From NCBI GenBank assembly GCA_009782385.1, contig WRJE01000008.1, positions 1-49,816 on the forward strand: a stretch of DNA of 49,816 nt, in the 5' to 3' direction. The notes beneath the pieces were generated by a model that was not told the DNA's origin, searched no databases, and saw nothing but the letters and a program-made list of their open reading frames with translations. This DNA comes from Oscillospiraceae bacterium. Its GTDB lineage: Bacteria; Bacillota; Clostridia; Oscillospirales; UBA929. Position numbers and translations under genes: made by a program. Of this stretch, positions 21,415-49,550 are shown piece by piece (the first letter of the stretch is position 1; each line of letters opens with the position of its first letter).

Positions 21415-21585
21415 TCTTATCCTCCGTATTAAAAATGCCTGTAACAAAACCGCGTAACGGTTCTGCTACAGGACAAGAAATCTCCCGCGGGTTTCTTATT
21501 TGTTAGCTTATCATAGCACAACAGATGTGTCAAGAAATTTTTTGCGGCGGGAGTGTCGTTGCCGTGTCGTCCATTAGGCGCGATG

Positions 21586-21614
21586 TTGACAATTTCGCCG
21601 AATTATGCTAAAAT
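21586..21614 (+). promoter_or_regulatory. Predicted sigma-A promoter of the candidate type I toxin mRNA
   Basis: TTGACA-17 bp-TAAAAT. Confidence 0.75.
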
Positions 21615-21700
21615 ACGCCTTGCAAGAGGGTGTTGGTCTCCGGTTACGCTGCCTTTTCTTCTCCCCGCAGATTCTGTGTGGAGGAGGGAGGTGATTGCTG

Positions 21701-21784
21701 TTGGTAAAAAAGTTGATTCGCTTTGCTGTCTGCGCGATATTCGCGCTTTGGCTCTTGGTGATGTTAGCTCCAAACGCAATGTAG
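21701..21784 (+). CDS. Candidate type I toxin-like hydrophobic peptide (27 aa, TTG start)
   Basis: MVKKLIRFAVCAIFALWLLVMLAPNAM; strong SD gaggagggaggtg upstream; not in the supplied ORF track because of length. Confidence 0.65.
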   Translation: MVKKLIRFAVCAIFALWLLVMLAPNAM

Positions 21785-21863
21785 CCGCCCAGCTCTCCGC
21801 AAAAGACTGACGGCTACATAGTCGTTTATTCTAGGCGGCGTGTCGGTATCGACACGCTCTTGC
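21781..21863 (-). ncRNA. Candidate antisense RNA antitoxin (5' part; 3' end unknown)
   Basis: Starts about 7 nt after a minus-strand TTGACA-N17-TAGAAT promoter and covers the 3' end and hairpins of the toxin transcript. Confidence 0.5.
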
Positions 21864-21869
21864 ATTTAC

Positions 21870-21898
21870 ATTCTACCACTATATTTTCACTATGTCAA
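21870..21898 (-). promoter_or_regulatory. Predicted sigma-A promoter of the antisense RNA
   Basis: Minus strand TTGACA (21898-21893)-17 bp-TAGAAT (21875-21870). Confidence 0.7.
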
Positions 21899-22013
21899 TA
21901 TAAAATTTATCGTTTTGTTCGGTAAAAATGTAAAAACGGTGCGCCGGGGTCGTCGCGCCCTACGAATTGGAAAACATACGCGGTCGGGCATGGAAGCCGC
22001 CCCTATAAATGTC

Positions 22014-22042
22014 TTGTTGAAATTTGGAAGTTATGGTATAAT
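22014..22042 (+). promoter_or_regulatory. Predicted sigma-A promoter
   Basis: TTGTTG-17 bp-TATAAT upstream of the 22082 CDS. Confidence 0.6.
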
Positions 22043-22081
22043 TTTGTTGGGAAAGATATTATATGCAGATGGAGGCTCACG

Positions 22082-23505: not shown

Positions 23506-26500
23506 TTAGATTTTCTTGTTGTTTCGCCATGATATAAAGTATACCGCGAATACCGATGACGACAGGCACATCAGGATAAAGTATTTAATTATACCGGAAT
23601 CGCCTGTTTTAGGATTGACCTTGACCGCTTCGGTGTCGTCAAATTCTGTGAGCGGCACGTCTTCGTCAAATATCCACTCGCCGTCATCTTCGCTCCAGTG
23701 CCATTCGCCCATCGGAACGCCGTAAGCGTCAAACTCAAAGAAGAATACATCGCCGTTTTCGTCTATGGAGGGCATAAGCGTGAACGCGGGATTGTGTGGA
23801 ACAGGCGGTATCTCGTGGATAACTCCTCCGGCGTGTGACTCATCGGGCTGATGTTCGTCAAAGTGCATAGTCGGGAAGTCTTCGGGAGTAGTTCCCTCCG
23901 GGAATCTTATTCTTTGAGGCTCGGGAGTAACGTCAGGTGTTGGATTTGGTGTCGGGTCGGGATTAGGGGTCGGGTCGGGGATTGGGTCTGAACTCGGTGT
24001 AATATCGGGTGTTGGACCCGGCTCGGGCTCGGGTTCGGACGTTGGCTCAGGTTCGGGTGTTGAGCTAGGGTCAGGTGTCGGTTCGGATTCCGGTGGAGTG
24101 CTGGGTTCTGGCGTTGAATCGGGATCCGGTGTCGGACTGGATTCTGGTGGAGTGCTGGGTTCTGGCGTTGGTGTTGGGTCTGAATCCGGCGGAGTGCTAG
24201 GCTCAGGTGTTGGACTGGGCTCTGGCGTTGGGTCTGGGTCTGGCGTTGGGTCGGGGTCGGGCGTTGGATCTGGGTCTGGCGTTGGGTCGGGGTCTGGTGT
24301 CGGGTCAGAGCCCGGATCTTCGCCGCCCGTTTTGTGTTCATATGTGTTTACAACCGTGACCGTCATATTTGTTCCCTGCGGAAATACCGCGTTATTGCCC
24401 TCATATGACACCGCGTAATGCGCGCCGCCAACCTCTTCCACAAGGTATTTGCAGTTAACCCAAAGATTAGTGACGGTTACGGGCTGACCCGCGCTTATGG
24501 TTATAACATCACCTGTAGAGCTGTCTGCGCTGCCGTTGTTCCCGTAGCAGTTGTATTCCGCGCCGCTGCCTGTAAACAGCAGATAGTTATCGTTGGTAAC
24601 GTCTTTTATACGCACCTGATATGTGGTATCATTGCCCGCGCTCCAGTCTGAGTAACTGCCCGCAAGCCGCTTGTTTATTATCATGTTGCCCGTTTTATGC
24701 TCGTATGTGTTGGTGACGGTCGCCGTGCTGTTCTGCCCGCCGGAGATGACCGATGACGCGCCGCCGCCCTCGTAGCGATAGTCGCTTACATACGCGCCGC
24801 TGTCTTCAACGACTGTGTACGCGCCGTCAGGCAGATTTATTATCCGCGCGGACTGACCCGCGCTGATGGTTATCGGGTTGCCGGAAGCGTCAGCTCCGTC
24901 ATACTCATACTCCGGTCCGCTGCCTTTAAGTTTCAGGAATTTACCGGATGAATCTTTTACCCGCGCTTGGAATGTGATGTCGTTATTAACACCCCAGTCG
25001 GCATAACCGCCCGCGAGCTTCTTGCTGACGATCAACGCGCCGGAGACCGCGATATAGTCGTTGTTTACCGTGATAGAAGTGTTTCCGCCGCTGCTGACCG
25101 CCGCGTTATTGCCGATATAGGACACGGTGCAGTTGCCATCGTCCAGTTCCTCGATTTCATATTTCCCGTCTGTAGGCAGACCCGTTATCATAATACTGTG
25201 TCCCGCGCTTACGGTAATAATATCTCCGGTTGAGCTGTCTGCGCTTCCGCTCAGACCTCTGAATTCATATTCCGGCTCATATCCGGAGAAGCGCAGATAC
25301 TCGCCCGTAACGGTATCCTTGACCCGTAAATCGAATGTAGTCGAAAGACTAACGCCCCAAGCGGTGTAACTGCCGCTGAGAGTTTTATTGATAACAAGGT
25401 TGCCCGTGCCTGAGCTGAACGTGTTAACCACCGTCACCGTGCGGTTCTCTCCATCGGGGAACGACACGTTATTTCCGGTATATGCCGCCGTGTAATGCGC
25501 TCCCGCTTTCTCGATTACCTCATACTCGGTATCAGACCAGAGATTCAGAAGCGTCAGCGGGCGTGACACGCTGAACGGCAGCTCCATCACGACATTCCCG
25601 CCGTAAGGTTCGCTAAGTCCGTCCACATCGTTACCCACGCACCGATAACTCCCGTCCGGTTCGGGGGTGTCCTTGAACAGTAAATTATTGTTGCGGGTAA
25701 CATCTTTTATCACGGCATAGAAGTTCTCATCGTTGTTAACGCTCCAGTCCGCGTAACTTCCGGAGAGGACTTTTTTGACTATAAGTCCGCCCGTGCCATG
25801 TTCATAGGTATTAACGACTGTTATCGTCTTATTTGCTCCCGTGGTAAGCGTGACGTTATTACCCTCATAAGTCGTTGTGAGATGCGCCGCGGCAGCTCCC
25901 GATGTCTCGTTGACCGCGTACATCCTGCCCGACCACATATTGGAAAGTCTTAACGGTTTGCCCTCGCTGACAGGAAGCTCCGTTATTGTCGCGCCGGAGT
26001 AATCAGCAGGATTGCTCAGACCGCTCGCGGTGTTCCCAACGCATTTATAGCTTCCGTCCGCCTCCGGTGTCGGCTTGAAAAGCAAAGTGTTGCCCATGGT
26101 GACATCCGAGACCTCAACATAGAAGTTGACGTTAGGGGTAATACCCCAATCGGAATAGCCGCCCTCAAGCCTTTTGTTGACTATCAAGATGCCCGTTCCG
26201 TGTTCATAATTGTTGGTTATAGCCACTTCGTCACTTCCGCCGCCGGAGAAGCTCGCCGTAAAGACCCCCTCCGCCGTGTAATGCGCGCCTTCGATCTCTT
26301 CAACCAAGTATGTAATATCGGCGGGGAGATTAAATATAATCGCTTCCTGCTCGGCGGTGAATGTTATTAAATCTCCGGTTGTGTCCGTACCGTTAAAGTC
26401 ATAGTAAGGACCCGTGCCAACCAGCCTTACATACGTATTGTTTGTAATATCTTTTATTTTCGCGTGAAACTCTGTCCTATCGGTAATACCCCAATCTCCA

Positions 26501-27894
26501 TGGTTCTCGCCCAGCGTCTTTCTGACCGTAAGCTGACCGGACTGTTCACCGCCGCCGCCGGACCAAGTGTTTTTGAACTCCCTGTCGCCTTTGGTGTATG
26601 TGACGACCGGGCTGCCGCCGCTGAGTGTGACCTTAACCTCGCGCACCGCCGTGTCGTATGTCCACTCGTCATCGCTGTAATCCGCCTCGTAGAGTTTGTA
26701 ATAGAAGGTGTCCGGAGTTCCCCAAGGGTTATACGGCATTACGACCGACAGCTCAAACTCCCCGCCTGTGGTGACAGTCGTAGCGGCTATGCCGTTGTTA
26801 TAAGTATATGTGCTGTCGCTCTCCGCCAGTGTGAATATAAAATCCCTTGGATTTTCCGTAGCACCGACTATGGTCTTTTCGCCGCTGATGATAAAAGAGA
26901 GTATTGAAAAACCGCCCTCGCCTGTTACAATGCTGCTCGTCTTAATGCTGTAATCGCCCCAGCCGCAGATTGCCTGTCTCCCCGCGCTGTCGGGACACCA
27001 GAAGAAAAACCCCTCGTTAGTTACGGAGCAGTCAACCGTTGCCTCGGCTTTGACAATCTGTACAATCCCGCTCGGAGGGCTGCCCATCTCAACATAGAAC
27101 TGATCGCCGTCTTTCATGACAGCCGAAGAACCCAAATATGCGTTATCGGGATAACTGCGAAGCTGATTTCCCATTTCGCCGCTGACTTTCACGGGTATTT
27201 TAGAACCCCAGATATCATATGGCATATTCATAGCAACAACTTCGAGTGTCAGCGGCCCGTAACATCCCGTTGCCGGGTCGTAGCCGCCATCGTAACTGAA
27301 GCCAATCTCTATTTCCGGGTCTCCGTAGGGCAGTGGGTTGTACGATGCCGCGCCCGCCGCGTCGCTGATAAGACCGTTATACACATCCAACATAGCGGCA
27401 TCAGCACCGTCCGGGGGCGTGAAACTTTTATTGCTGCTGTAATACCAAATTGCCCACTGGGTAACTACATATGCCTTTTCCGGCGTAAGTCCGCCGAAGG
27501 TTGTGCCGACACCCATGCCTCCGGACACAGTTCCCCGATACCCGTTCTTGGCTATCCAGAGCATTTGATCGCTGTAGTAGCTGCTCCAACCCACGCCGTC
27601 AGGGTCAAGCACCGTGTCGTATGTGCTTCCCGTGGATTTGCCTTTTTCGATGCAGTAAACCGCATAGTATGCCGAGCCGCTTTCGGTCTTCATACCCATA
27701 ATAGTAACGCCGTCTTCAGACGTGGGGTACTCCACCAGATTATGACTGCCGGTTTCGGCGGCCTGCCCTATCGGTATTGAAGCCACCGCCCACGGCAAGC
27801 ACATCAGAAAACAAAGAAAAATACTGGTAACACGCCGTGCCGTGCCGTTCCTCGATTTTGTGTGATTATGTATATGCCGATGTCTATTAAACAT
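23506..27894 (-). CDS. Large cell-wall-anchored adhesin: thioester domain, repeated domains, Pro-rich stalk, NPKTG sorting signal
   Basis: Thioester-domain motifs YAVYCIEKG and VVTQWAIWYYSS; six repeats of the type GxLIVxKxLxGxYxDWGV; PDPDPTPDPDPTP stalk; C-term NPKTGD + TM + RNNKK. Confidence 0.9.
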   Translation of the reverse strand: MFNRHRHIHNHTKSRNGTARRVTSIFLCFLMCLPWAVASIPIGQAAETGSHNLVEYPTSEDGVTIMGMKTESGSAYYAVYCIEKGKSTGSTYDTVLDPDGVGWSSYYSDQMLWIAKNGYRGTVSGGMGVGTTFGGLTPEKAYVVTQWAIWYYSSNKSFTPPDGADAAMLDVYNGLISDAAGAASYNPLPYGDPEIEIGFSYDGGYDPATGCYGPLTLEVVAMNMPYDIWGSKIPVKVSGEMGNQLRSYPDNAYLGSSAVMKDGDQFYVEMGSPPSGIVQIVKAEATVDCSVTNEGFFFWCPDSAGRQAICGWGDYSIKTSSIVTGEGGFSILSFIISGEKTIVGATENPRDFIFTLAESDSTYTYNNGIAATTVTTGGEFELSVVMPYNPWGTPDTFYYKLYEADYSDDEWTYDTAVREVKVTLSGGSPVVTYTKGDREFKNTWSGGGGEQSGQLTVRKTLGENHGDWGITDRTEFHAKIKDITNNTYVRLVGTGPYYDFNGTDTTGDLITFTAEQEAIIFNLPADITYLVEEIEGAHYTAEGVFTASFSGGGSDEVAITNNYEHGTGILIVNKRLEGGYSDWGITPNVNFYVEVSDVTMGNTLLFKPTPEADGSYKCVGNTASGLSNPADYSGATITELPVSEGKPLRLSNMWSGRMYAVNETSGAAAAHLTTTYEGNNVTLTTGANKTITVVNTYEHGTGGLIVKKVLSGSYADWSVNNDENFYAVIKDVTRNNNLLFKDTPEPDGSYRCVGNDVDGLSEPYGGNVVMELPFSVSRPLTLLNLWSDTEYEVIEKAGAHYTAAYTGNNVSFPDGENRTVTVVNTFSSGTGNLVINKTLSGSYTAWGVSLSTTFDLRVKDTVTGEYLRFSGYEPEYEFRGLSGSADSSTGDIITVSAGHSIMITGLPTDGKYEIEELDDGNCTVSYIGNNAAVSSGGNTSITVNNDYIAVSGALIVSKKLAGGYADWGVNNDITFQARVKDSSGKFLKLKGSGPEYEYDGADASGNPITISAGQSARIINLPDGAYTVVEDSGAYVSDYRYEGGGASSVISGGQNSTATVTNTYEHKTGNMIINKRLAGSYSDWSAGNDTTYQVRIKDVTNDNYLLFTGSGAEYNCYGNNGSADSSTGDVITISAGQPVTVTNLWVNCKYLVEEVGGAHYAVSYEGNNAVFPQGTNMTVTVVNTYEHKTGGEDPGSDPTPDPDPTPDPDPTPDPDPTPDPDPTPEPSPTPEPSTPPDSDPTPTPEPSTPPESSPTPDPDSTPEPSTPPESEPTPDPSSTPEPEPTSEPEPEPGPTPDITPSSDPIPDPTPNPDPTPNPTPDVTPEPQRIRFPEGTTPEDFPTMHFDEHQPDESHAGGVIHEIPPVPHNPAFTLMPSIDENGDVFFFEFDAYGVPMGEWHWSEDDGEWIFDEDVPLTEFDDTEAVKVNPKTGDSGIIKYFILMCLSSSVFAVYFISWRNNKKI
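23940..24325 (-). repeat. Low-complexity coding repeat for the Pro/Asp/Glu/Thr-rich stalk
   Basis: Reiterated tcgggttctggcgttgggtctgg-type units encoding PDPDPTP/PEPSTPP. Confidence 0.85.
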
Positions 27895-28065
27895 TATATT
27901 TGCCCCCTTCCCGAGTGGACGGAATCCGTTTCCGTCCAAGCGGACATTGAATCCGCTCTTACATAATGATTATAATCCCGGCAAACATATATGTCAATAG
28001 AGATATGGCGAAATCCACACATTGCTATGTTTGGAAACTGTTCCTCCCGCGCCGCCCGTGCTATA

Positions 28066-29032: not shown

Positions 29033-29428
29033 TCAGTGACACCACAACCACTTTACATCATATTTCCTTACATTTTCATCAGCTGATAAAAAGGTCATAT
29101 TCTCGGCTATCGCCGTAGCTATGAGCAGTCTGTCGAACGGGTCTCGGTGATGATACGGCAATGTTTCAACACGGTGAATATGGTGAGGTTCGAGCGTTAG
29201 CAATTCAAATTCGCTTGCCGCAACTTTATCAAAAAACTCCTCAACGCTACACAGCGGCGTTTTTTCCCGGTTAAGACTGCGTTTGATAGCTATTTCCCAC
29301 GCCGAAACAACGCTGACAAATATTTTGCTGTCGTTATCAAGTATCGCCGATTTTGCCATCTTCGAGAGTTCCGGGTTGCCTGTAAAAAACCAAAAAGCAG
29401 TATGTGTATCAAGCAGATACCTCATCAC
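29033..29428 (-). CDS. PIN domain toxin (VapC-like)
   Basis: YLLDTHTAFWFFTG; VSAWEIAIK; DPFDRLLIATAIAENMTFLSAD. Confidence 0.9.
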   Translation of the reverse strand: MMRYLLDTHTAFWFFTGNPELSKMAKSAILDNDSKIFVSVVSAWEIAIKRSLNREKTPLCSVEEFFDKVAASEFELLTLEPHHIHRVETLPYHHRDPFDRLLIATAIAENMTFLSADENVRKYDVKWLWCH

Positions 29429-29700
29429 ATATACTCCTTGAAGTCATCAAGCGGCTCATCAAAATTCTCGGGCAAGGAATATTTACCTTTCCATACGCCG
29501 TATTGCGCTTCGCGTTTTTGAGCTATATTTTCCGCCTTGTACTCAGTTCCCACCACAAAAGGCAGATTGTTAGCCCTTACCGTTTGTTTGAGGAACAGAT
29601 TTACTGCCGTGGACAAATCCAAACCGATAGACTCAAAAATCCTTTGAGCTTGCGTTTTTAGTTCCGCTTCTGTTCTCACATTTATATTCGCACTTGACAT
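29425..29700 (-). CDS. RelB/DinJ family antitoxin
   Basis: NINVRTEAELKTQAQRIFESIGLDLSTAVNLFLKQTVRANNLPF; RBS aggaggtgtcgttATG; 4-bp overlap with the PIN toxin. Confidence 0.88.
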   Translation of the reverse strand: MSSANINVRTEAELKTQAQRIFESIGLDLSTAVNLFLKQTVRANNLPFVVGTEYKAENIAQKREAQYGVWKGKYSLPENFDEPLDDFKEYM

Positions 29701-29836
29701 AACGACACCTCCTGTTTGCCATATTGTATCACGAATGAATCGCGTTGTCAATACATTTTGTGTTAATATGGCTAAATTGAGTGCCAAAAATTGATATTAT
29801 GCGTTCAACACCTTCTCCAGTGACGGCGGCGTACCG

Positions 29837-49322: not shown

Positions 49323-49336
49323 AAAAATACCTCCTT

Positions 49337-49512
49337 CTCGTATCCGGACTTTTCACTGTTCCCGCAAAGGGAATAAATCCTTTTGCTTGAAAACAGCGAC
49401 TTACCGTCGGCATCGGAATCTCACCGAATTCAACCTTATATAAGGCTCGCGGGCTTGCCACGGTAAAACCGTGTATAACCGCCGGTGGGGAGTTTCACCC
49501 CGCCCCGAAAGA
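49337..49512 (-). ncRNA. FMN riboswitch (RFN element)
   Basis: Minus strand CUUUCGGGGCGGGGUGAAACUCCCCACCGGCGGU...GCAAGCCCGCGAGCC...GAUUCGGUGAGAUUCCGAUGCCGACGGU...AGUCCGGAUACGAGAAGGAGG. Confidence 0.95.
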
Positions 49513-49550
49513 CTTGTTGAGGGTATTATAACACTGAGAGCGAGCGAGTG

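What the first reader, a model, noticed from the sequence alone, without database searches (positions are those of the whole stretch)
21586..21898. Unannotated candidate type I toxin-antitoxin locus between aspS and the 22082 gene
Seen directly: promoter TTGACA-N17-TAAAAT (21586-21614), strong SD (gaggagggaggtg), and a TTG-initiated 27-aa peptide MVKKLIRFAVCAIFALWLLVMLAPNAM at 21701-21784 (Lys-rich start plus one transmembrane segment). A convergent minus-strand promoter TTGACA-N17-TAGAAT (21898-21870) would make an antisense RNA across the toxin 3' end. Two hairpins follow the ORF (GTAGCCG/CGGCTAC and GCGTGTCG-gtat-CGACACGC). Small hydrophobic peptides with convergent antisense RNAs are the established layout of type I systems such as Fst/RNAII and TxpA/RatA. 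Toxicity and antisense repression are inference.
Basis: partly seen in the sequence, partly recalled or inferred. Interest (0 to 1): 0.78.

Follow-up and report, generated by a model that had tools for sequence, protein, structure and literature searches.

The report
Small toxin gene silenced by antisense RNA
This stretch is one of about fourteen related copies, in one gut bacterium's genome, of a tiny two-gene unit: one gene makes a 27-amino-acid membrane peptide that is probably toxic to the cell, and the opposite strand makes an RNA that probably silences it; the control RNA matches the known bsrG/SR4 type of Bacillus, but the peptide belongs to an undescribed family.

Summary
From one promoter to the opposite one, the element recurs about ten times in the same genome (14 loci with sub-types) and across Clostridia. 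The 23-31 aa frame is under purifying selection in its own frame only. The antisense promoter is kept in 59 of 61 copies. Shine-Dalgarno hairpin, stop-codon hairpin and 3' hairpin are all conserved. This is the architecture of bsrG/SR4, whose own sequence passes the same test, not of Fst/RNAII. The window peptide matches no Pfam, NCBIfam, PHROG or Rfam family, yet the same RNA chassis carries true Hol_Tox toxins elsewhere, once in a tandem array beside window-like peptides. I read it as a new toxin family on a bsrG/SR4-type chassis with exchangeable toxins. Toxicity, transcription and repression remain untested.

The parts
21586..21614 (+). sense (toxin mRNA) promoter TTGACA-N17-TAAAAT, TG before the -10
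   Evidence: of 55 elements in the family 37 have a site of at least 9/12, mean 9.1 vs 5.6 in shuffles
21622..21654 (+). 5' leader of the toxin mRNA (X), predicted to pair with 21834-21863
   Evidence: fold of 21621-21872; leader/3'-end duplex mean -47.9 kcal/mol vs -33.4 +/- 0.8 when 3' ends are re-dealt among 64 elements
21655..21689 (+). Shine-Dalgarno hairpin: UUUCUUCUCC pairs with GGAGGAGGGA
   Evidence: pairs kept with changes on both sides in homologues
21701..21784 (+). toxin ORF, TTG start, 27 aa MVKKLIRFAVCAIFALWLLVMLAPNAM, TAG stop
   Evidence: pN/pS 0.51 in frame 0 vs 0.96 and 1.50 in the other frames
21781..21817 (.). hairpin 1 GTAGCCG...CGGCTAC overlapping the stop codon: terminator of the antisense RNA and its probable recognition loop; the loop varies between paralogues
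21834..21863 (.). X': complement of the leader in the mRNA; contains hairpin 2 (21838-21857) followed by a T-rich run (sense terminator); the same segment is the 5' stem of the antisense RNA
21768..21863 (-). [quoted passage not shown]
   Evidence: fold z-score -4.55; covariance model of this part finds the family; transcript ends inferred
21870..21898 (-). antisense promoter TTGACA-N17-TAGAAT
   Evidence: 59 of 61 elements have at least 9/12, mean 10.9 vs 6.4 in shuffles

Best explanation
The locus is a chromosomal type I toxin-antitoxin unit built on a bsrG/SR4-type RNA chassis with its own toxin family. A roughly 250-nt mRNA is made from 21586-21614. Its 5' leader pairs with its 3' end and its Shine-Dalgarno sequence lies in a hairpin, so the message is stable and poorly translated. 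A roughly 96-nt antisense RNA from a stronger opposite promoter ends at the hairpin over the toxin stop codon. It is fully complementary to the mRNA's 3' end. It probably makes first contact through the hairpin-1 loop, then invades the 3' strand of the 5'-3' helix, and the duplex is cut by RNase III. When the antisense RNA is lost, the 27-aa peptide (basic N-terminus, one membrane helix, APNAM end) is made and inserts in the cell's own membrane. Shown here: anatomy, conservation, selection on the frame, covariation. Inferred: transcription, repression, RNase III, toxicity.
For: Multicopy element bounded by the two promoters. Sixteen window-like (type A/B) copies found by similarity keep an open frame ending in TAG at the hairpin. 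Purifying selection in frame 0 only in three of four groups. 5'/3' pairing co-varies and the window mRNA folds with z -6.48. Antisense promoter conserved and on average better than the sense promoter. Same chassis carries Hol_Tox peptides above Pfam's cut-off, and classical Hol_Tox loci of Clostridia show the same leader/3' pairing. In G008:C50 three tandem units share nearly identical promoters, two with window-like peptides and one with Hol_Tox. bsrG of phage SPBc2, the characterised case, shows the same 5'-3' helix in the same test (-48.4 kcal/mol vs a mean of -18.3 with other 3' ends), and a review describes SR4 binding hairpin L3 and then the 3' part of main helix P1 (PMC6562991).
Against: No transcript or growth data. 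The peptide has no detectable match to any named toxin. Group C alone shows no excess of synonymous change (pN/pS 0.79). Predicted Shine-Dalgarno accessibility does not rise when the 3' end is removed (mean 0.30 full, 0.21 truncated), so an AapA/hok-like switch by 3' trimming is not supported.
Confidence: 0.86

Rival explanations
1. A miniature transposable repeat: inverted ends and many copies in unrelated places, with the ORF incidental.
For: About ten window-like copies with unrelated flanks; the ends are inverted repeats; truncated copies exist.
Against: The frame is under selection; start, Shine-Dalgarno and stop are kept; the inverted ends differ completely between sub-types yet stay complementary within each element, which a transposase end would not do; the match ends at promoters.
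Confidence: 0.05
2. A small membrane-protein gene with a cis-antisense regulator that is not a toxin (for example a regulatory or secreted peptide).
For: Toxicity is untested; some peptides of the chassis are amphipathic rather than transmembrane (MEYITELRKLIQALASLIRAIKTK).
Against: Hol_Tox members on the same chassis; antisense promoter on average better than the sense one; rare TTG/GTG starts and hidden Shine-Dalgarno as in known type I toxins (PMC6562991).
Confidence: 0.08
3. Type I unit of the Fst/RNAII (par) kind.
For: Convergent promoters, hidden Shine-Dalgarno and a terminator hairpin shared between strands, as described for par (PMC7472228).
Against: The repeats are inverted (leader complementary to the 3' end of the same RNA), not direct repeats giving sense-antisense pairing at the start codon; peptide lacks PXXXG; no Pfam hit.
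Confidence: 0.03

Closest known systems
bsrG/SR4 (and bsrE/SR5) of Bacillus subtilis and phage SPbeta
   Same: Convergent genes overlapping at the 3' ends; 5'-3' main helix in the toxin mRNA (tested on SPBc2); hidden Shine-Dalgarno; antisense terminator hairpin at the toxin stop codon; small membrane peptide.
   Different: Peptide family unrelated by Pfam; antisense RNA shorter (about 96 nt vs an overlap of 100-140 bp in the Bacillus systems, PMC6562991); sense terminator merged with the 3' arm of the main helix, whereas bsrG has a separate downstream terminator; one genome holds about ten copies.
TxpA/RatA and Pfam Hol_Tox (PF16935) loci
   Same: Clostridial Hol_Tox loci have the same leader/3' helix and hairpin over the stop codon; Hol_Tox is found inside a tandem array with window-like units.
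   Different: Window peptide is not Hol_Tox; no RatA or other Rfam match.
Fst/RNAII (par of pAD1)
   Same: Convergent promoters, hidden Shine-Dalgarno, small membrane peptide.
   Different: Inverted instead of direct repeats; no PXXXG motif.
aapA/IsoA of Helicobacter pylori
   Same: 5'-3' long-distance pairing in the toxin mRNA plus metastable Shine-Dalgarno hairpins (PMC6733600).
   Different: There the antisense RNA is encoded opposite the small ORF itself and the Shine-Dalgarno is held by the long-distance helix; here the antisense lies at the 3' end and a local hairpin holds it.
C. difficile CD2517.1-RCd8, CD2907.1-RCd9, CD0956.2-RCd10
   Same: Clostridial, convergent, antisense overlaps the toxin mRNA (PMC6563280).
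   Different: Toxins of 50-53 aa; no sequence comparison with them was made here.

Membership tests
type I toxin-antitoxin system | small (under 60 aa) usually hydrophobic peptide under selection | tested here: met
   27 aa; pN/pS 0.51 in frame 0, 0.96 and 1.50 in other frames
type I toxin-antitoxin system | conserved antisense RNA gene complementary to the toxin mRNA | tested here: met
   at sequence level: antisense promoter 59/61, conserved terminator and 5' stem; transcription itself not testable
type I toxin-antitoxin system | peptide inhibits growth of its own cell | not testable with these tools
   needs expression in a laboratory strain
type I toxin-antitoxin system | antisense RNA represses the toxin | not testable with these tools
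   needs reporter or growth assay
bsrG/SR4-type chassis | 5' leader pairs with 3' end of the toxin mRNA (main helix) | tested here: met
   mean -47.9 vs -33.4 +/- 0.8 kcal/mol, none of 10000 permutations below -36.3; bsrG itself passes
bsrG/SR4-type chassis | antisense overlaps only the 3' end and terminates at the toxin stop region | tested here: met
   anatomy and hairpin conservation; RNA ends inferred
bsrG/SR4-type chassis | Shine-Dalgarno hidden in a short stem | tested here: met
   10-bp stem in the window; conserved with compensatory changes
Hol_Tox (PF16935) toxin family | profile match above the gathering score | tested here: not met
   window peptide has no Pfam match at E up to 10; sister elements do match
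Fst/Ldr toxin family | PXXXG(C) motif in the membrane helix | tested here: not met
   peptide sequence; motif from PMC7472228
Fst/RNAII (par) | direct repeats giving sense-antisense pairing at the start codon | tested here: not met
   end repeats are inverted
RatA or another Rfam RNA family | covariance-model match at gathering score | tested here: not met

The most novel reading that the evidence does not exclude
One RNA chassis (5'-3' helix, hidden Shine-Dalgarno, terminator over the stop codon, convergent strong antisense promoter) is shared across Clostridia and some phages and has exchanged its toxin reading frame several times, for Hol_Tox, several one-helix families including the window's, and amphipathic peptides such as MEYITELRKLIQALASLIRAIKTK. 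Within a genome the recognition loops diversify to keep copies separate, and some copies persist as antisense-only genes.
Probability: 0.5. Interest if true: 0.72.

Novelty: new variant of a known kind. Interest (0 to 1): 0.55.

Why it matters
The library review of clostridial type I systems says that homologues of known type I toxins could not be found in most clostridial species (PMC6563280). Here a covariance model of the RNA, not of the peptide, finds such loci in many clostridial genomes and links undescribed peptides to known Hol_Tox toxins. That gives a direct search method for toxins too short and varied for protein profiles, and a test bed for how a dozen antisense-controlled toxins in one cell avoid cross-talk.

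Tried and rejected
Mobile repeat without a gene: rejected because the frame is selected and the ends co-vary. Fst/par membership: rejected (inverted repeats, no PXXXG). Switch by 3' trimming as in AapA or hok: predicted Shine-Dalgarno accessibility does not rise on truncation. The window element itself was not found in 50,697 phage records, 72,556 plasmids or, as an exact pattern, in IMG/VR; looser chassis patterns were found in 27 IMG/VR contigs, of which six gave no peptide frame by my rule. Two paper searches and one pattern failed on syntax; the founding survey of type I families (Fozo 2010) is not held. Structure prediction was judged uninformative for a 27-aa helix.

Full report
Observation. 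The promoters, Shine-Dalgarno run, 27-codon frame and two hairpins are at the stated coordinates. The TTG start at 21701 is right: homologues have ATG there (for example MGKKLIRFVFCAIFALWLLIKFAPKAM), and the window's nearest copy also has TTG.

It is a repeated, conserved unit. A DNA search with 21480-22080 found copies in the same genome on contigs C26 (86%), C73, C47, C3, C84, C29, C31 (two) and C55, and in related genomes. The matched part begins and ends at the two opposing promoters (query 106-429 = 21585-21908), so promoter-to-promoter is the unit. The named relatives in GTDB are Oscillospiraceae metagenome-assembled genomes. A covariance model of the 3' part found the element or diverged sub-types in 14 of 19 genomes of the family at E up to 1e-3, 26 of 297 in an order sample and 26 of 392 in a class sample at E up to 1e-4. 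A few of the weakest hits are visibly chance rho-independent hairpins (G197, G216, G622), so these counts are approximate. In the window's own genome I count 14 loci: eleven with a peptide frame and three without.

The frame is a gene. All 16 window-like (type A/B) copies found by similarity keep an open frame of 23-30 codons ending in a TAG that lies in the hairpin. In three groups of copies pN/pS is 0.51, 0.42 and 0.37 in frame 0 and near or above 0.85 in the other two frames. A fourth group gives no contrast (0.79).

The RNA. The 5' leader is complementary to the 3' end of the same transcript. Across 64 elements the leader/3'-end duplex averages -47.9 kcal/mol; re-dealing 3' ends among elements gives -33.4 +/- 0.78, and none of 10,000 permutations goes below -36.3. 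The sequences differ entirely between sub-types (GGTGTCGG, GGACGGTTACC, GCGGGCGGTCTGCC, GGCGGTCTTTGTCC), so this is strong covariation. The elements are related and the permutation does not correct for that, but the sub-types change both sides together. The window mRNA folds with the long-range helix and a 10-bp Shine-Dalgarno stem at -111.2 kcal/mol, z -6.48. Fifty-seven of 64 mRNAs have the long-range helix in their minimum-energy fold.

The antisense RNA. The antisense promoter has at least 9 of 12 consensus bases in 59 of 61 elements (mean 10.9), better than the sense promoter (37 of 55, mean 9.1). Its RNA would start GCAAGAG, form a 5' stem, and end after the hairpin over the stop codon. 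The hairpin stems are 91-96% conserved but its loop only 54%. Between paralogues of this genome the loop duplex averages -16.4 kcal/mol against -40.6 for cognate pairs. The cognate value is trivially perfect; the point is that paralogues have diverged where first contact is expected.

Link to known toxins. The window peptide has no match in Pfam, NCBIfam or PHROGs. But a chassis copy in G008:C50 carries MTVFEALTLMLAFAALVLALKDRKEK, Hol_Tox PF16935 at 34.7 bits (cut-off 23.3). It sits in a tandem array whose three units share almost identical sense and antisense promoters, while the other two carry window-like peptides ending APKAM or AQKAM. Chassis patterns in IMG/VR give five further Hol_Tox peptides above the cut-off out of ten tested. 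Conversely, loci picked by the Hol_Tox profile in clostridial genomes show the same hairpin over the stop and the same leader/3' complementarity. The characterised bsrG of SPBc2 passes the same test, and the review of Bacillus systems describes SR4 contacting hairpin L3 and then invading the 3' part of the main helix P1, with RNase III cleavage (PMC6562991). The window locus therefore most likely works like bsrG/SR4.

What remains inferred: both transcripts, their ends, repression, RNase III involvement, membrane insertion and toxicity. The role of the 5'-3' helix is not settled; computed Shine-Dalgarno accessibility is low both with and without the 3' end (0.30 and 0.21), so the local hairpin seems to do the hiding and the long helix may serve stability and antisense docking.

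Novelty. No Rfam family covers it. The literature held here describes bsrG-type systems and a few clostridial systems, but I found no description of this peptide family or of exchange of toxins on a common chassis; that search was limited to open-licence papers. I call it a new variant of a known kind: type I, bsrG/SR4-like regulation, new toxin family.

Noticed in passing
window 21935-21968: A short dispersed repeat (GGTGCGCCGGGGTCGTCGCGCCCTACG) lies just downstream of the element; dozens of copies occur in related genomes G002, G009, G015, G022. It is separate from the toxin unit.
   Followed up: no
L033:248-393, L034:1001-1143, L036:1001-1114, L037:997-1134: Four copies lack the toxin start or the whole frame but keep the antisense RNA gene and score as high as complete ones (97.7-109.1 bits): possible antisense-only (orphan antitoxin) genes or recent deletions.
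   Followed up: partly
L098, L101, L088, L094, L096, L099: A sub-type of the chassis encodes a conserved 24-aa amphipathic peptide (ELRKLIQALASLIRAIKTK) instead of a membrane helix; no Pfam, NCBIfam or PHROG match, pN/pS 0.37.
   Followed up: partly
L081 (G008:C50:3500-5800): Three tandem units with nearly identical promoters but different toxins (two APKAM/AQKAM-type, one Hol_Tox): looks like toxin exchange on one chassis.
   Followed up: partly
window 29033-29787 (-): A RelB-like antitoxin gene and a PIN-domain gene overlap: a type II toxin-antitoxin pair.
   Followed up: no
window 23506-27939 (-): A 1477-aa surface protein with a thioester (TED) domain, repeated DUF7601/DUF5979 units and a Pro-rich repeat near the C-terminus.
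   Followed up: no
window 49328-49516 (-): FMN riboswitch (Rfam RF00050, 82.4 bits).
   Followed up: no
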